From a virus: 60,450 nt of DNA. This document shows positions 3,612-59,887 of the stretch, one piece after another. The DNA lies in IMG/VR virus record IMGVR_UViG_3300028377_000012, positions 1 through 60,450 of that record. One strand, given 5' to 3'. The notes under the pieces were generated by a model that saw nothing but the letters and a program-made list of their open reading frames with translations, had not been told where the DNA came from and did no database searches. Position 1 is the stretch's first letter, and each line of letters starts with the position of its first letter. Made by a program: the position numbers and the translations under genes.

Positions 3612-4517
3612 TTAATTATTTATTGAATTCATTATATTTTGCAACATATCTCCCGCCTTAAACCCACCAAACTTATCACGCCACACACTTTTATTATTGT
3701 AAATACTAAATAACCCAAGTTTTTCTGTAACTTCAAAGAACATACTTAAATTGGGGTCTATATCAACAATTTGGTCTGAATAAAATTCAATTTCATCGGA
3801 ATATTGATCTAATCCCTTTCTCAAGTCCATAATCCACATATTGCGCTTGATAATTGCTTTATTTTCATCTGATAATGCTGATAATCCCTCAGAAACATTT
3901 TCTACGATCTTTCTAGCCTTCACAGGGCCATATCGAAATAATCCACTAATGTTATCAGACTTATCACCAATAATTGCCTTATAGAGTAAGTATTTATCAA
4001 TATCGACGCCATCTGTATGTTCCTTATGATTGCTTTCATTTATTAGTTCTTGTTTAATTGGTGAAAAAATTTTAATTGAGGGATAGTAATTGATTAATTG
4101 TAGAAAATCCTTATCATTTGATACGATTACATTATCATCATTAGGATATTCAGAGCATAACCATGAAATGATGTCATCTGCCTCTAATTTGTTAGCTCGC
4201 ATGTTTCTAATACCTAAATATTCACACATTGCCCAAATAACCTTATCACATCTATGTGAGTCTTCTTCATCAGAACGGTCGCGTGTTGCTTTATATCCAA
4301 CAGCATCCTGCCTAAAGTTAATAAACTCAGTATCGCGAATATCCCATGCTATAAATATGTTATCAGCCTCAAATCGTTCTTGTAAAGATAGCAGATTCTT
4401 CATATAACATAGTATATGTCCAACTTCTTTACCGACAGAGTTTGTAAATGGTTTGTTTTGTGGTGAGTAATATGACCGCATTAGTAAATTACCGCCATCT
4501 ATAAATAAATTTTTCAT
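3612..4517 (-). CDS. rnh: RNase H / 5'-3' exonuclease (T4 Rnh-like, FEN family)
   Basis: This 301-residue protein is close to T4 RNase H (305). It is a flap-endonuclease-family enzyme that removes RNA primers from Okazaki fragments. Metal-ligand motifs of the family appear in order: FIDGGNLLMRS at the N-terminus, WDIRD near 75, LEADDIISW near 130, VSNDKDFLQL near 150, and GDKSDN near 200. The ATG at 4517 is preferred because it follows the upstream stop by one base; a longer frame would begin inside the upstream gene. The 3' end abuts the late promoter and start of the zinc-ribbon gene. The assignment is secure. Confidence 0.92.
   Translation of the reverse strand: MKNLFIDGGNLLMRSYYSPQNKPFTNSVGKEVGHILCYMKNLLSLQERFEADNIFIAWDIRDTEFINFRQDAVGYKATRDRSDEEDSHRCDKVIWAMCEYLGIRNMRANKLEADDIISWLCSEYPNDDNVIVSNDKDFLQLINYYPSIKIFSPIKQELINESNHKEHTDGVDIDKYLLYKAIIGDKSDNISGLFRYGPVKARKIVENVSEGLSALSDENKAIIKRNMWIMDLRKGLDQYSDEIEFYSDQIVDIDPNLSMFFEVTEKLGLFSIYNNKSVWRDKFGGFKAGDMLQNIMNSINN
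3617..3624 (-). promoter_or_regulatory. Late promoter octamer
   Basis: AATAAATA on the minus strand, then ATTAAT and the ATG at 3610. Confidence 0.75.
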
Positions 4518-49935: not shown

Positions 49936-51525
49936 TTATTTAATAATTTCTATTTGTTTTGGAAAAATAGGATTATTGGTTGCTAAATACGCTGGCAACC
50001 CACTCTCTTTACTATTATGCAATTCATCATTTACTGTTTCGGCTATTCCGTCTTCTGGATCGACAATTAGATTGGATATTGGAATGGTAATTTTTAATAT
50101 TGTTGGCGAGTCCTTTTCATCTGCAAACCATTGTGCATTTTCAATAAAATTTGTTAAATAAAACAAATTAGGGTTGCCCATTTGCGACCCACGTTGTCCA
50201 GAATTTGGTTTCCATCCAAATTTGATGAGATTCACCGCTGTTCCAAAACTAGTTCCGTGATATAATGTAACTAGTTTTTGATCTACTTCTTCAAATATAA
50301 TAGTAATTCCCGCATCATACGCATTTCCACCAACAGTTTTTTTACCAACAGGATTACCAATTCTATATTTCTTGGCATAGAATGCAGCTTCTGGACTACC
50401 TTGTTTAACTTTAATAATCTTAGATCCGTTCGTTTTAGCGGAATCTATTTTGTTATCAAGTTTGTTTGAATTTTTTCTTTGATATTCTGGTAATATATTT
50501 AAGGATTTGCGATCACCTTGTCCGAGCATACCTGCACTGTTCTGTTGCTGACGGTGTTTAGCCTTATGCTGCATGTCTCCACGCCCTTGAGTAGTGCCTA
50601 GCATGTCTTTATATACATTCTCTTCGTAAACCCCCTTAAAGCGGGTCATAGTGGCTCCTTTAGTTAGGTTGGTTTTCAGTAATTGATTAAGTTGCTTATA
50701 TTCCTTACCACTTAATTCCTCATCCCTACCTAAAATTTTCTTAATTTTCTTTGCAAGGTCAATATAGTGATAACGTTCAATAAGTTTAAACACAACATTA
50801 CCTGGAAGTCTTGTTTTAATTCCATATTTTTTAAGTTCCGATGGTGTCATATCCTCTGCAAATGCATCATTTCTAAAAACACTAAGTTCGCCATATACAT
50901 CGATCAACGATAGTAAAGATTTTTCAAGTTTATTTAATTTCCTTTGTATCTTTTTTGATAACCCATCAAGTTGGTTTTGTGGAATATCCTTTAAAATTTC
51001 AATATCTACCATATCTCTGCGAATTTCTTCAGTAAAATCGGAAAATTGTTGGACGTATTTTTCAAAATCCTTTGAATAATCATCTATGTTAATATTCTTT
51101 GAGGGTGTTCTCTTGATCCACTCATCGTCTTTTAAATTATATATACCTTCTGCGTTTTTTATATTGTAACCTTTGTTAGTAATATAATATTGTAATGGGT
51201 GTGGGATACCCTTTAGGTATTTATCATCGATTTCTAACCATGTTGAATATAATATATCGCGAAGATCTTTCTCAGATTTGGTGGACTTAACTCTAATAAA
51301 AATATCAATATCAGAATCTTTCGTATATTGCTTTGATAAGATGCTACCTTTGATAAAATAGTCAACAATTGGAACAACTGATCTTACCTTATCAATATCT
51401 TGCTCAATTTTATTTTTTAAATATTCTTTAATAGTGGGTGCAGTATCTTCTGGATTATCAAATACATATGGGGAATATGTTTTAAGGGTTTGGTCAACTA
51501 CAGATTCAAGTAAAGATAATTTCAT
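49936..51525 (-). CDS. Nucleotidyltransferase plus ADP-ribosyltransferase-like fusion, candidate packaged effector
   Basis: A 529-residue late protein. Near residue 50 it has FIKGSILSKQYTKDSDIDIF, the G-S...D-x-D pattern of polymerase-beta-type nucleotidyltransferases. Near residue 435 it has KLVTLYHGTSFGTAVNLIKF then GNPNLFYLTNFIENAQWFAD, the His and Tyr segments of ADP-ribosyltransferase-like folds. The middle is helical, with a Gln-rich linker. The N-terminus MKLSLLESVVD contains L-L-E/S, a prohead-protease-like site. T4 packs the ART Alt in its head and injects it; this could be a functional counterpart, though no homology to Alt itself is evident. The start is set by a late octamer 5 nt upstream; the longer frame crosses the promoter. 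Confidence 0.65.
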   Translation of the reverse strand: MKLSLLESVVDQTLKTYSPYVFDNPEDTAPTIKEYLKNKIEQDIDKVRSVVPIVDYFIKGSILSKQYTKDSDIDIFIRVKSTKSEKDLRDILYSTWLEIDDKYLKGIPHPLQYYITNKGYNIKNAEGIYNLKDDEWIKRTPSKNINIDDYSKDFEKYVQQFSDFTEEIRRDMVDIEILKDIPQNQLDGLSKKIQRKLNKLEKSLLSLIDVYGELSVFRNDAFAEDMTPSELKKYGIKTRLPGNVVFKLIERYHYIDLAKKIKKILGRDEELSGKEYKQLNQLLKTNLTKGATMTRFKGVYEENVYKDMLGTTQGRGDMQHKAKHRQQQNSAGMLGQGDRKSLNILPEYQRKNSNKLDNKIDSAKTNGSKIIKVKQGSPEAAFYAKKYRIGNPVGKKTVGGNAYDAGITIIFEEVDQKLVTLYHGTSFGTAVNLIKFGWKPNSGQRGSQMGNPNLFYLTNFIENAQWFADEKDSPTILKITIPISNLIVDPEDGIAETVNDELHNSKESGLPAYLATNNPIFPKQIEIIK

Positions 51526-51530
51526 ATAAT

Positions 51531-51538
51531 TATTTATT
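51531..51538 (-). promoter_or_regulatory. Late promoter octamer
   Basis: AATAAATA on the minus strand, then ATTAT and the ATG at 51525. Confidence 0.75.
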
Positions 51539-51559
51539 GTATTGGGGATATTGTGCAAC

Positions 51560-51591
51560 AAAAAACGCATCTCGTTTCCAAGATGCGTTTT
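51560..51591 (-). terminator. Rho-independent terminator
   Basis: On the minus strand an 11-bp perfect stem AAAACGCATCT/AGATGCGTTTT with an 8-nt loop runs into TTTTTTG, 21 nt past the stop of the 51613 gene and just before the next late promoter. Confidence 0.9.
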
Positions 51592-52189: not shown

Positions 52190-52197
52190 TATTTATG
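52190..52197 (-). promoter_or_regulatory. Late promoter octamer overlapping the terminase start codon
   Basis: CATAAATA on the minus strand (52197-52190) drives the 51613 gene. It shares bases with the plus-strand ATG at 52195. Confidence 0.6.
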
Positions 52198-54027
52198 TTT
52201 TATAGTCCATTTTTTTCAAAATGTGGAAATATCTTTAAATATTTAAAAAGATATATGCAATCAGGTAGAAAAATAGTCCGTAAGGATGATGAATTAATTA
52301 AGCGTCTTAATAAGAGATACGCAGACAATGTAGTGCCGTATATGGGTAATAGTAATTTACCAACAGTCGGTTCTACATATCAATATGATGCCGATAGATT
52401 ACAAGTGTGGGGACGCTGTAGGGATAACATATTATATTTTGCACAACATTTTTTTTACATTATAACTGACGGTAAAAGAGAAACTATCAATCTTCACCCA
52501 TTCCAAAGAAATGCATTAAGGATGTTTAGAGAAAACAAAAAAAATATAATGTGCACGTCTCGTCAGATCGGGAAAGCTCTTGCTATAGAAACCCCTATAC
52601 CTACACCAAACGGGTGGACAACTATGGGTGAACTAAAAGATGGGGATGTTATATATGACAATAATGGGAGTAAAACTAATGTAATAAAGGCATGGGATGT
52701 TATGCATGATAGACCATGTTATAAAATTACTTTTTGTAACGGTGAGGAAATAGTTGCAGATGAAGAACATTTGTGGATGACTGAAACTTTTAATGACCGT
52801 CGAGGTAGAAAAAATAAATCATCAAATAAAAAGAAAACAACTAAAGATATTTTAGATACATTGTATTATAAAAATGGGAATGTGTATCAACCGAACCATG
52901 CTATCAAGTTGGCAGAACCTATTGTTGGTAATGGTAATGATGATTTAGAAATACACCCATATATATTGGGGTTATGGTTGGGTGATGGATATGCACATGA
53001 ACCAAAACTATGTGTAGGGTATCAAGATATCGAAATTCAAAAAAGTATATTAGGTGAGTTGGGGTATATTGAAGATATTAATTACACTACACATGATATG
53101 GCAGATAAGGGACATATGATCATTAGTTTTATTGGTAATATACCCAATAAAGATATCACCATGAGAAAGGCCATTAGAGATTTAAATATTTTTAAAAATA
53201 AACATATACCCCAAAAATACCTTAGATCATCTATAGATGATAGAAAGTTATTACTTCAGGGTATAATGGATACAGACGGTTCTATAACTAATACTATGAA
53301 TACGTTTTATAATACAAATAAGGCCATTATTAATGACGTTAGGGAATTATTAATGACGTTAGGTATAAAATATAATGTAAAAGATATAGTAAATGAAAAC
53401 TTTCATAAAGGTAAACAGAGGAAGGATATATATAGGTTACATTTTAAATCTAAATTTGATGTTTTTAAAATACTTAGAAAAATTAAAAAACAAAAAATTA
53501 CTAATTTGAAGAAAGGCAATTATGTATATATCAGAAATATAGAACCCGTTAATAGTGTCCCTGTAAGATGTATAACTGTAGACTCTACAGATGCTGTATT
53601 TATGTGTGGAAAAAGTGGGATTGTTACATCAAACACCACCCTAATGACAATTTATGCCCTATGGCTTGTAACTTTCTGTGAATATCAGAGTGTAATCATT
53701 GTTGCCAATAAAGAAAAAACCGCTAAAGAAATTCTTGAGCGTATTAAGACTGCGTATGAAGGTTTACCAAATTGGTTAAAGGCTGAAGTTGCAAGAGGTG
53801 GGTGGAATAAAGAAGAAATTTTATTTCAAAGTAAAAGTAAAATTCAAATTAGTGCAACAAGTGCTGATAGTATTCGTGGTAAAACATGTAATTGTGTTGA
53901 CGGATCAACTGTAGTTACTATACGCGATAAACATACAGGTGATATATTTGATATCAATATGGAGAATTTATATAATATATTAGAGTCTGATGGTGAAGAC
54001 ATGAATATGTTTTTAGTTAGTGAATAA
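52195..54027 (+). CDS. 17: Terminase large subunit, N-terminal part, with class-3 intein and split-intein N-fragment
   Basis: A 610-codon frame. Residues 1-127 are terminase (FQRNALRMFRENKKNIMCTS ending in RQIGK). Residues 128-480 are an intein, and residues 481-566 resume terminase (TTLMTIYALWL, then SATSADSIRGKTCN). Residues 567-610 are the N-fragment of a second intein that ends at a stop. After splicing, CTSRQIGK joins TTLMT to restore Walker A, as in T4 gp17 SRQLGKTT. The packaging ATPase itself is completed by the downstream frame. The start at 52195 overlaps an opposing late promoter; ATG 52255 is an alternative. Confidence 0.92.
   Translation: MFYSPFFSKCGNIFKYLKRYMQSGRKIVRKDDELIKRLNKRYADNVVPYMGNSNLPTVGSTYQYDADRLQVWGRCRDNILYFAQHFFYIITDGKRETINLHPFQRNALRMFRENKKNIMCTSRQIGKALAIETPIPTPNGWTTMGELKDGDVIYDNNGSKTNVIKAWDVMHDRPCYKITFCNGEEIVADEEHLWMTETFNDRRGRKNKSSNKKKTTKDILDTLYYKNGNVYQPNHAIKLAEPIVGNGNDDLEIHPYILGLWLGDGYAHEPKLCVGYQDIEIQKSILGELGYIEDINYTTHDMADKGHMIISFIGNIPNKDITMRKAIRDLNIFKNKHIPQKYLRSSIDDRKLLLQGIMDTDGSITNTMNTFYNTNKAIINDVRELLMTLGIKYNVKDIVNENFHKGKQRKDIYRLHFKSKFDVFKILRKIKKQKITNLKKGNYVYIRNIEPVNSVPVRCITVDSTDAVFMCGKSGIVTSNTTLMTIYALWLVTFCEYQSVIIVANKEKTAKEILERIKTAYEGLPNWLKAEVARGGWNKEEILFQSKSKIQISATSADSIRGKTCNCVDGSTVVTIRDKHTGDIFDINMENLYNILESDGEDMNMFLVSE
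52576..53634 (+). other. Class-3-type Ala-1 intein with LAGLIDADG endonuclease in terminase Walker A
   Basis: A 353-residue intein. It starts with Ala (ALAIETPIPTPNGWTTMGEL, block A) and has ADEEHLW (block B, with Trp). It has two endonuclease motifs, YILGLWLGDGY and LLQGIMDTDGSI, and ends RCITVDSTDAVFMCGKSG then IVTSN, followed by Thr. Trp in block B, Cys in block F and Thr at +1 make up the W-C-T set that defines class 3 inteins, which need no residue-1 nucleophile. Ser replaces the usual penultimate His. Confidence 0.9.
53893..54024 (+). other. Split intein, N-fragment (44 aa)
   Basis: Begins with the nucleophile Cys1 (CVDGSTVVTIRDKHTGDI, block A) directly after terminase RGKTCN. It ends at a TAA stop before any block B sequence. 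This is a short, atypical N-fragment, of the kind known from AceL-TerL. Confidence 0.88.
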
Positions 54028-54081
54028 ATACCAATTCTTGAAATAGGTGGCTAAAAGGTAGGCCGAAAGCTAAATAATAAT
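54025..54081 (+). other. Gap between split terminase halves
   Basis: After the TAA at 54025 come 54 nt in the same frame, with a second TAA at 54052, before the ATG at 54082. It holds a G-rich segment AGGTGGCTAAAAGGTAGGCC and the near-late-promoter GCTAAATA (54069-54076) placed 5 nt before the ATG. No endonuclease gene lies between the halves. Confidence 0.8.
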
Positions 54082-54420
54082 ATGGCAGATGTTGTAGATT
54101 ACTCTATTTTTAAAAATAATAGGTTTGAGGTCTTAACCCAAGATGGGTTTAAAGACTTTAAAGGGGTTATTAAGGGAAAAAATTATAATAAGTTGATAAT
54201 TCATACTTATAAAAATTCCTTAATATGCACACCTAAACATAAGTTAATGGTGGACGATAACAAATATACATTTGCCAAAGATTTAAAAATCGGTGATACG
54301 ATTTATAATGGCATAGTTATTATAGACATAATTAAGGTCAATAATACAAAACCCGTATACGAATTCCTAGAAATCAAAGATAATCATACATATTATGCTA
54401 ACGGTTTTTTATCTAAGCAA
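54082..54420 (+). other. Split intein, C-fragment (113 aa)
   Basis: Contains FEVLTQDGFKDFKGVIKG, block B SLICTPKHKLMV (T-x-x-H), a KIGDTIYNG turn, block F VYEFLEIKDNHTYYANG, and ends GFLSKQ before Cys+1. The usual terminal His-Asn is replaced by Lys-Gln. Confidence 0.88.
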
Positions 54421-55647
54421 TGTTTACTTATTGATGAACAGGCATTTATAGAACCTAATATTATGAAGGAATTTTGGTCTGCTGTTTACCCAACTATTTC
54501 TAGTTCTGATAATGCAAAGGTGCTGATCGCATCAACTCCAAATGGGGTTGGAAATTTATTTCATAAATTATGGGAAGTGTCCAAAGAAAAAGGGTCTGGT
54601 TGGGGCAGATTAGAGGTTCCTTGGTCTAATGTGCCTGGAAAAACCAAAGAGTGGGCAGATCAGGAGCGGATGACACTTGGCGATGAACAATTCCAACAAG
54701 AATATGAATGTAAATTTCTTGAATCGGGTGGTTCAAATATTTCACAAGAGTTATATAATGAGTTACAAAAATCTTGTAGAAAACCAAGAATAGAGCATGA
54801 CGATGGAGCATATAAGATTTTTGAACAGCCTAATATTAAAGATCGTATGTATTGTGCGGGTGTTGATATTGGAGAAGGCGTTGGAAAATGTGCCTCAACG
54901 GTTTGTGTATTTGATATAACTGAGCTTACACGCATCGAACAAGTTGCTACATATCATTGCACAGATATTGGGCCATATGAGTTTGCAAGGCGTGTTAATG
55001 AAGTAATGACCCATTGGGGCAAACCGCCACTTGCAGTTGAGCGTAATAATACTGGTGGGGGTATTGTTATTAATACTCTCGACAAGGAATATAATTATCC
55101 CAACCTTGTGAACTTTGCAACAAAGCAAGGTAATCGCGATTATTCTCACTTAAAGGGCGTTACATCATCTACAAATACAAAATATCATGGTGTTGAGAAT
55201 ATGTTTTACCTTTTAAAAGACCATCGTAGAGTTGTTTTACACGATGAAGATTATCTTAAAGAATTGAATACATTTGTGTCCAAAGGTAGCGGTAAATGGG
55301 GTAAAAAAAGTGATTCATATTTTGACGATAGAGTTGACGCAATGATGTGGGCATTAGTATGTGTGCATGAAATGGTAGTGAATCAATATTTCAATGTTGT
55401 AAGGTGGGATGATAATAAAAAACCAATCTTAATTCAAGCCATGTATGAAGCATTTGGTAGAAAAGATATGAACTATCTATTTGGAAGCGAAGAAAATAAT
55501 TATGGTATAGATTCCGTGTTTATGGGTGATGGTGGATGGGGTGACGATTCAGAAATGGATAATATTATCGATGCTGGTTGGTTAACGCCTACGCAAGATG
55601 CTGATAGTGGTTGGGCAAGTTATCACCCAGCCCCTAATTATTCATAA
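54082..55647 (+). CDS. 17: Terminase large subunit, C-terminal part, fused behind split-intein C-fragment
   Basis: A 521-codon frame. Residues 1-113 are the intein C-fragment. From residue 114 terminase resumes with CLLIDEQAFIEPN, which holds Walker B and the catalytic Glu. Then ASTPNGVGNLF (coupling motif) and the RNase-H-type nuclease domain follow: AGVDIGEGVG, AVERNNTGGG, and SYFDDRVDAMMWAL with the late Asp residues. With the N-part (127 + 86 residues) and this C-extein (408 residues), the spliced enzyme is 621 residues, close to T4 gp17 (610). Without trans-splicing neither half has a full ATPase site. Confidence 0.92.
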   Translation: MADVVDYSIFKNNRFEVLTQDGFKDFKGVIKGKNYNKLIIHTYKNSLICTPKHKLMVDDNKYTFAKDLKIGDTIYNGIVIIDIIKVNNTKPVYEFLEIKDNHTYYANGFLSKQCLLIDEQAFIEPNIMKEFWSAVYPTISSSDNAKVLIASTPNGVGNLFHKLWEVSKEKGSGWGRLEVPWSNVPGKTKEWADQERMTLGDEQFQQEYECKFLESGGSNISQELYNELQKSCRKPRIEHDDGAYKIFEQPNIKDRMYCAGVDIGEGVGKCASTVCVFDITELTRIEQVATYHCTDIGPYEFARRVNEVMTHWGKPPLAVERNNTGGGIVINTLDKEYNYPNLVNFATKQGNRDYSHLKGVTSSTNTKYHGVENMFYLLKDHRRVVLHDEDYLKELNTFVSKGSGKWGKKSDSYFDDRVDAMMWALVCVHEMVVNQYFNVVRWDDNKKPILIQAMYEAFGRKDMNYLFGSEENNYGIDSVFMGDGGWGDDSEMDNIIDAGWLTPTQDADSGWASYHPAPNYS

Positions 55648-58682: not shown

Positions 58683-59411
58683 ATGGGATTATCAAGTAAT
58701 AGAAATGCTAAACGCGCACTCTCTAGGCAATTAGGTCGTTTAAACAGACCAAATTTTAAACAGACCGTATTAGTTGATAGTAAGCGCAAATTGATAGATA
58801 GTATAAATTCTGATAGATCAATTAACACTATTTTAAATACCCAAGCTGAAAAAGATCAATTAATTTATAATTTTGAAAAAGAAATTTTAAATAAAAAGCG
58901 TGAAAAATTTTCACCATATGTTGAAACTGATATTGAAACTGAATATGTTGAACAACCATGCACGACCCAATTTGACTTTGGTAATACTAGTTGGATTGGA
59001 GAAACTTGGAGAACTGAAGCAGTATTTACAGGTGTAGCGGAGGATGATATACTATATATTGATAGTTGGCATATAGTGCCAATTACGACGGGATCCAGAT
59101 ATGGGTATATTGAGTTCCTTATCAAACCAGATATTGAAAGTATTATATTTACAATTACACATGATCGTGATTCAAAAGATGATAATGCTTGGATAAAAGC
59201 GTATAAAAACGATGTGTTAATAGCCGAAGATGTTAGTATTTTGGGGCAGTATGATCCAAATTATTGGTTGTTGGAAGGAGGGAGTAGCTTTCAACTATCA
59301 GCCAATAATTTAACTTCAGATGGTTGCGAAACCAAAATAAAACTAGAGGGTCGAATGGATGGTGGCACTCCTACATACATTACTGTTGAGGTTGACAATA
59401 TTATAAAATAA
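58683..59411 (+). CDS. Virion-type protein, unknown, 242 aa
   Basis: The N-terminal part (residues 1-80) is basic and helical, with KREKFSPYVETDIETEYVE near residue 75, a segment shared with the next gene. The C-terminal 150 residues are beta-rich (TSWIGETWRTEAVFTG, then SRYGYIEFLIKPDIESIIF) and could be a jelly-roll or carbohydrate-binding-like domain. Possibly a tail or decoration protein, given the position after the sheath gene. No family is named. Confidence 0.6.
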   Translation: MGLSSNRNAKRALSRQLGRLNRPNFKQTVLVDSKRKLIDSINSDRSINTILNTQAEKDQLIYNFEKEILNKKREKFSPYVETDIETEYVEQPCTTQFDFGNTSWIGETWRTEAVFTGVAEDDILYIDSWHIVPITTGSRYGYIEFLIKPDIESIIFTITHDRDSKDDNAWIKAYKNDVLIAEDVSILGQYDPNYWLLEGGSSFQLSANNLTSDGCETKIKLEGRMDGGTPTYITVEVDNIIK

Positions 59412-59416
59412 CTAAT

Positions 59417-59887
59417 ATGAATTTATCAAAGAGAAGGCGCATTTTAGACAATAATAGAGATATTCGATCATCTATTATTAAAAAGCGTGTATTAGCGGAT
59501 CGCCAAATGAGAAATGATATTGTAAATGTGAATAAATATATTGGTCAAAAAAGATATAAATTTTCACCATATGTTGAAACTGAATATGTTGAACCAGAAC
59601 CAGAATTTGGTATATGTGATTTAGTTGATACAGACTTCGAGGACGATTGTGAATATTATGGCAATTTGTTCTTAACGGGGCCATTTGCAATTCTTGAAAA
59701 TTTTGAAACTAGAACAAATGACGAAATTGGTGGGGAATTTTTTAATGTGGGTTTATTTAATTATGTTGAGGATTTTGAAACTAGAACAAATGACGAAATT
59801 GGTGGGGAATTTTTTAATGTGGGTTTATTTAATTATGTTGAGGATTTTGAAGATGGGTTATCGCATGGCGAATTAATAAATTTGTGA
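59417..59887 (+). CDS. Virion-type protein with internal tandem repeat, 156 aa
   Basis: The N-terminal basic helical region and KFSPYVETEYVEPEPE resemble the previous gene, so the two look like paralogs that differ in cargo. The C-terminal half contains a perfect 72-bp tandem repeat encoding 24 residues twice (FETRTNDEIGGEFFNVGLF and following). It starts 5 nt after the previous stop. The function is unknown; the repeats may set the length of a surface element. Confidence 0.6.
   Translation: MNLSKRRRILDNNRDIRSSIIKKRVLADRQMRNDIVNVNKYIGQKRYKFSPYVETEYVEPEPEFGICDLVDTDFEDDCEYYGNLFLTGPFAILENFETRTNDEIGGEFFNVGLFNYVEDFETRTNDEIGGEFFNVGLFNYVEDFEDGLSHGELINL
59701..59844. repeat. Perfect 72-bp tandem repeat (two copies)
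   Basis: Units 59701-59772 and 59773-59844 are identical and in frame (24 codons each), followed by the first bases of a third copy. Confidence 0.95.

What the first reader, a model, noticed from the sequence alone, without database searches (positions are those of the whole stretch)
53893..54420. Terminase gene fractured by an atypically split intein
The sequence shows terminase RGKTCN joined to a Cys-1 intein block A that stops after 44 residues. A new ATG frame 54 nt later starts with the rest of the intein (113 residues, including block B T-x-x-H and block F) and resumes terminase at CLLIDE. Extein junctions align exactly with T4 gp17. The break lies before block B, unlike the usual split near the C-terminal end, and resembles the AceL-TerL type known from metagenomes. 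The packaging motor would need protein trans-splicing to be active. A complete phage context for such an intein, with both halves adjacent, is valuable.
Basis: partly seen in the sequence, partly recalled or inferred. Interest (0 to 1): 0.95.

Follow-up and report, generated by a model that had tools for sequence, protein, structure and literature searches.

The report
Phage motor gene split by intein
This phage makes its DNA-packaging motor protein as two separate pieces that a self-splicing protein element (a split intein) is expected to join; this is a new example of an arrangement already known from other phages, with a visible scar showing that the selfish nuclease gene that once sat between the pieces has been lost.

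Summary
The T4 gp17-like terminase (TerL) is encoded in two ORFs. The first ends with a 44-residue Cys1 N-intein. After a stop and 54 nt, the second starts with a 113-residue C-intein and resumes at CLLIDE. Four other assemblies carry the same break, so it is not a sequencing error. The joined exteins align without a gap through the junction to T4 gp17 (E 4e-47). The two halves fold confidently as a HINT domain, and the best PDB sequence match is Cat, the consensus of the atypically split TerL inteins AceL and GOS (E 2e-18). So it is an S2-type split intein, most likely trans-splicing. It is not the first phage context: cultured Campylobacter, Shigella and Pseudomonas phages and dozens of IMG/VR contigs carry the same family, usually with a homing endonuclease between the halves. 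New in detail: the 54-nt spacer is a scar of that endonuclease's last codons; related endonuclease-less loci also stay split, several with similar scars; the intein ends in Lys-Gln; the same gene carries a contiguous class 3 intein in Walker A. Splicing is inferred, not shown. New member of a known kind.

The parts
52255..54027 (+). First TerL ORF: N-extein with Walker A, contiguous intein 1, then N-half of split intein 2. The longest ORF starts at 52195; L005 suggests ATG 52255.
   Evidence: PHROG terminase families E 4e-82
52576..53634 (+). Intein 1: contiguous 353-aa LAGLIDADG intein between GK and T of Walker A (SRQIGK|TT). Class 3 signature: Ala1, Trp in EEHLW, Cys in VRCITVD, Thr in VTSN, Thr+1.
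   Evidence: (class 3 DnaB1 inteins 6rix/6bs8, E 1e-20)
53893..54024 (+). N-half of split intein 2 (44 aa, Cys1, block A, first helix)
54025..54027 (+). TAA stop ending the first half; identical in the other assemblies
54028..54081 (+). Spacer. 54045-54077 reads RWLKGRPKAK* in a frame of its own: remnant of the C-terminus of a GIY-YIG homing endonuclease
   Evidence: rank 4 of 120,896 six-frame positions
54071..54078 (+). TAAATAAT, candidate T4-type late promoter core just upstream of the second half's ATG
   Evidence: 13 of 77 gene starts against 0.37% of random positions
54082..54420 (+). C-half of split intein 2 (113 aa; TPKH; C-terminal Lys-Gln; Cys+1 follows)
54421..55647 (+). C-extein: Walker B (LLIDE), rest of the ATPase and RNase H-like nuclease domain of TerL
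   Evidence: (Terminase_6C)

Best explanation
The terminase large subunit gene of this T4-like phage is a fractured gene: a class 1 intein just upstream of Walker B is naturally split at the atypical S2 site (after the first helix). Two polypeptides are made. Their intein halves associate into a HINT domain, Cys1 and Cys+1 carry out the acyl shifts, the C-terminal Gln cyclises, and the exteins are joined into TerL. A contiguous class 3 intein in Walker A must also splice out in cis. The gene was first broken by a free-standing GIY-YIG homing endonuclease gene at the split site; that gene has since been deleted in this lineage, leaving about ten of its last codons in the spacer. Shown: gene anatomy, conservation of the split in relatives, predicted fold, family match, scar. 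Inferred: association, chemistry, splicing, and the order of events.
For: Same break and stops in four other assemblies. Same split in the sister locus L005 with GIY-YIG ORFs in the spacer. Many further loci with this split, with or without an endonuclease. The HMM of the halves hits CatC best in the PDB (E 1.8e-18). AlphaFold2 gives pLDDT about 93-98 in both halves with the spacer disordered; Foldseek and VIA return inteins at the top (VidaL E 1e-8, Z 19.3; Cat rmsd 1.9). Exteins join exactly as in T4 gp17 (E 4e-47). Purifying selection against L005: dN/dS about 0.17 in the C-half and 0.50 in the short N-half. Scar: RWLKGRPKA ranks 4th of 120,896 positions against endonuclease tails; similar scars in L012, L017 and L063. 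The sister L005 has the endonuclease (tree support 100/98).
Against: No splicing data. The C-terminus is Lys-Gln instead of the common His-Asn, which could slow cyclisation (Gln is constant in this clade, and Lys or Arg recur in L044, L005 and L055). dN/dS of the N-half is only moderately below 1 and rests on 44 codons. The scar is short. No recognisable scar was found in endonuclease-less L044 or L050.
Confidence: 0.88

Rival explanations
1. Genes-in-pieces without splicing: the halves assemble non-covalently into a working terminase and the intein remnants are passengers, as for the ribonucleotide reductase split by a homing endonuclease that PMC10448857 cites.
For: Two-peptide function after a homing-endonuclease split has been reported for a ribonucleotide reductase (PMC10448857).
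Against: The catalytic positions (Cys1, TxxH, terminal Gln, Cys+1) are kept across a diverse clade; the C-half is under purifying selection; unspliced, each half would carry intein sequence next to Walker B.
Confidence: 0.06
2. Stop-codon read-through: the two halves are in one frame (57 nt, two TAA), so read-through gives a contiguous cis intein with a 19-residue linker at a site where relatives carry in-frame insertions.
For: In frame, two TAA only; the read-through chain folds as an intein with a disordered linker; contiguous relatives with in-frame insertions at this site exist.
Against: The frame is not conserved: L005, L012, L044, L050, L063, L040 and L053 are out of frame. Two TAA would have to be read through in a row, and ORF2 has its own ATG and a promoter-like element.
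Confidence: 0.03
3. Pseudogene or assembly error.
For: Two stop codons inside an essential gene.
Against: Identical in independent assemblies; the split is conserved in diverged relatives; terminase sequence intact and alignable from end to end.
Confidence: 0.03

Closest known systems
AceL-TerL, GOS-TerL and engineered Cat-TerL atypically split inteins (PMC11766414, PMC13014065)
   Same: Same host protein, S2 split after the first helix, short N-half and long C-half; Cys1/Cys+1 as in AceL; Cat is the best PDB sequence match.
   Different: N-half is 44 aa (natural atypical N-halves reported as 15-37 aa, PMC13014065); C-terminal Lys-Gln (the AceL terminus His-Asn is from memory); a second, class 3 intein in the same gene; no endonuclease between the halves.
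Fractured genes (Dassa et al. 2009, cited; text not held) such as AceL NrdHF (PMC7891396)
   Same: Host gene cut within an intein into two ORFs; relatives have a GIY-YIG ORF in between.
   Different: Endonuclease gone here, scar left; AceL NrdHF is class 3 and split at the usual site.
Split TerL of Fletchervirus (Campylobacter jejuni phages NCTC12673, F370 and others)
   Same: Same type of split intein in TerL at Walker B, in two separate genes.
   Different: Halves lie about 27 kb apart on opposite strands, and the insertion point is a few residues further on (..FIDE|C).
Class 3 DnaB1 mycobacterial inteins (6bs8, 6rix)
   Same: Relatives of intein 1 by sequence, with Ala1 and WCT-type residues.
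   Different: Intein 1 sits in TerL Walker A and carries a LAGLIDADG domain.

Membership tests
Atypically (S2) split TerL intein | Inserted in terminase large subunit | tested here: met
   Exteins match T4 gp17 through the junction, E 4e-47
Atypically (S2) split TerL intein | Split after first helix, short N-half and long C-half on separate ORFs | tested here: met
   44 + 113 aa; helix at model residues 35-45 before the break
Atypically (S2) split TerL intein | Profile and fold match to AceL/GOS/Cat | tested here: met
   6dsl_B best sequence hit E 1.8e-18; rmsd 1.9 over 105 columns
Class 1 intein | Nucleophile at 1 (Cys/Ser), TxxH, Cys/Ser/Thr at +1 | tested here: met
   Cys1, TPKH, Cys+1
Class 1 intein | C-terminal Asn preceded by His (the common pattern, not a strict requirement; own knowledge) | tested here: not met
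   Lys-Gln; Gln is constant in the clade
Atypically (S2) split TerL intein | Protein trans-splicing activity | not testable with these tools
   needs co-expression
Fractured gene | Intein-split host gene in two ORFs | tested here: met
Fractured gene | Free-standing homing endonuclease between the halves | tested here: not met
   54 nt only, with a scar; present in L005, L016 and others
Class 3 intein (intein 1) | No nucleophile at 1; internal Cys; W and T of the WCT triplet | tested here: met
   Ala1, VRCITVD, EEHLW, VTSN read from sequence; class 3 DnaB1 inteins are the best hits

The most novel reading that the evidence does not exclude
The double interruption is used as a control: TerL is held inactive by a cis intein in Walker A and a trans intein at Walker B, with the second half on its own late promoter, so that packaging ATPase appears only after late expression and two splicing events. 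Fracture would then be kept by selection after the endonuclease was lost, rather than merely being hard to reverse.
Probability: 0.08. Interest if true: 0.75.

Novelty: new member of a known kind. Interest (0 to 1): 0.45.

Why it matters
It adds a natural, uncharacterised, atypically split TerL intein with an unusual C-terminus for protein-ligation work. More generally, the comparison gives a series from endonuclease-bearing to endonuclease-less fractured terminase genes, with deletion scars, showing that a gene can stay broken after the selfish element at the break has gone. The same family in cultured phages, including some with laboratory hosts, makes trans-splicing of an essential phage motor directly testable.

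Tried and rejected
Sequencing or assembly error: rejected by L001-L004. Self-splicing intron: no Rfam match in the window, and the spacer is 54 nt. Nucleotide-level relatives in the phage collection: none. Relatives in the genome-contig collection with the C-half profile: none confirmed, so no host hint. Folding the spacer RNA gave only weak structure. A first alignment misplaced the N-half helix; N rows were trimmed. A first scar test by pairwise alignment gave only p about 0.03; the profile of endonuclease tails was clearer. The intein as plainly more mobile than its host: C-intein identity exceeds C-extein identity in 79 of 136 pairs only, so no claim of recent transfer is made. The founding papers (Dassa 2009, Bachmann 2015, Aranko 2014) are not held.

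Full report
Observation. The reported anatomy is exact. ORF1 (52195-54027, real start probably 52255) ends RGKTCN followed by 44 intein residues beginning with Cys1. After the TAA and 54 nt, ORF2 (54082-55647) starts with 113 intein residues and resumes at CLLIDE. The same stops and spacer are present in four contigs from other metagenomes at 99-100% identity, so this is not a sequencing error. The record is a 60,450-base linear virus fragment of a T4-like myovirus, with portal, sheath, tube, DNA polymerase and helicase genes. With both inteins removed, the exteins form a 601-residue TerL that aligns without gaps across both junctions to T4 gp17 (E 4e-47) and to a Synechococcus phage TerL.

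What it is. A profile of the halves and their relatives finds, as best PDB sequence match, CatC (E 1.8e-18), the engineered consensus of atypically split TerL inteins. AlphaFold2 on the read-through stretch (TAA read as Gln, used only as a device to place both halves in one chain) gives pLDDT about 93-98 in both halves, a helix at the end of the N-half and a disordered spacer. Foldseek and VIA-align return inteins (VidaL E 1e-8, Z 19.3; Cat rmsd 1.9 over 105 columns). The break follows the first helix, the S2 position described for AceL-TerL and GOS-TerL (PMC13014065). Against L005, dN/dS is about 0.17 for the C-half, 0.50 for the short N-half, 0.25 for the N-extein between the inteins and 0.14 for the C-extein: the C-half is clearly constrained; the N-half estimate is weaker.

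Where it comes from. L005, the nearest diverged relative (63% identity; tree support 100/98), has the same split with two overlapping ORFs of a GIY-YIG endonuclease between the halves. In the clade whose C-half starts with MAD, many contigs carry an endonuclease ORF in a spacer of about 750-960 nt (L016, L040, L048, L052, L053, L055, L058, L061, L062 and others). Endonuclease-less but still split loci are the window (54 nt), L012 (139 nt), L044 (2 nt), L050 (8 nt) and L063 (26 nt), and outside the clade L017 and L015. Parsimony on the C-intein tree needs at least five changes of endonuclease state, though many deep forks are unresolved.

The scar. In a frame of its own the spacer reads RWLKGRPKAK followed by a stop. 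Endonuclease C-termini in relatives read for example GWVKGRL (L005), GWVKGRPKHDG (L052), GWVLGRPKNI (L067). A profile of these tails ranks the spacer 4th of 120,896 six-frame positions of the whole window; with about 40 positions in the three sense frames of the spacer, roughly 0.001 such matches are expected there by chance. Similar tails lie just before the C-half in L017 (WVKGRLPRG), L063 (GWVKG, stop, GPKERK) and L012 (IVPDNFVLGRPKHG). The simplest history is deletion of the endonuclease that spared its last codons next to the C-half's start. That the start region had to be kept is inference.

Second intein. The same ORF1 carries a contiguous 353-residue LAGLIDADG intein between GK and T of Walker A (52576-53634). 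Its splicing part matches class 3 DnaB1 inteins (E 1e-20), and it has Ala1, VRCITVD and VTSN followed by Thr. Both interruptions thus lie in the ATP-binding site. The same pairing is seen in L012, L015, L047, L051, L058, L064, L065 and L068, so it recurs.

Known context. Complete cultured phages have this family. In Fletchervirus the N-half and C-half genes lie about 27 kb apart on opposite strands. Krischvirus JK32 and Jiangsuvirus PspYZU05 have a Vsr-like endonuclease sequence between the parts or fused to the first. Campylobacter phage IBB_35 was reported with a terminase interrupted by an intein and a homing endonuclease (PMC3322345). Vibrio phages have a split intein at another TerL site.

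Mechanism and open points. Most likely the halves trans-splice by the class 1 route. The terminal Gln is constant in this clade; the penultimate residue is mostly His but Lys here and in L044, Arg in L005 and L055. Read-through is disfavoured because the common frame is not conserved. The second half has TAAATAAT just upstream of its ATG, a motif found at 13 of 77 predicted gene starts against 0.37% of random positions, so it may be transcribed separately as a late gene; this is a guess from sequence. Nothing here shows splicing.

Noticed in passing
window 3390(-), 26075, 39529, 41009, 47737, 55644, 59903 and others: A T4-type late promoter core (e.g. TATAAATAATTAATATG) lies 12-15 nt before many start codons; if T4 spacing holds, late mRNAs would be leaderless or nearly so.
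   Followed up: partly
L005 around 3975-4013: The C-half start of L005 lies in a hairpin AATCTGCCATTATATAAATATTTATGTAATGGCAGATT with a late-promoter-like TATAAATA inside (-20.8 kcal/mol), so RNA read through from upstream would hide the start while late RNA would not; resembles T4 late-gene control (own knowledge).
   Followed up: partly
L025 3004-4332 and L032 2632-3360 (GU296433): Fletchervirus TerL halves, unannotated in GU296433, lie about 27 kb apart on opposite strands: a fully dispersed split intein in cultured phages.
   Followed up: partly
L016 1198-4594; L061; L068; L031: TerL genes with further inteins, including a third site after QEF, so some TerL genes appear to be in several pieces.
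   Followed up: no
L084, L091, L093, L096-L098, L110, L111: Contiguous TerL inteins with a long in-frame insertion at the same S2 position, suggesting that S2 is an insertion site for endonucleases as well as a split site.
   Followed up: partly
window 49936-51570 (-): Nucleotidyltransferase-like protein with a C-terminal extension (TLYHGTSFGTAVNLIKFG...) absent from the shorter L005 homologue; it looks like a separate domain.
   Followed up: no
window 58905-58933 and 59558-59587: Near-identical 30-base stretch in two neighbouring genes.
   Followed up: no
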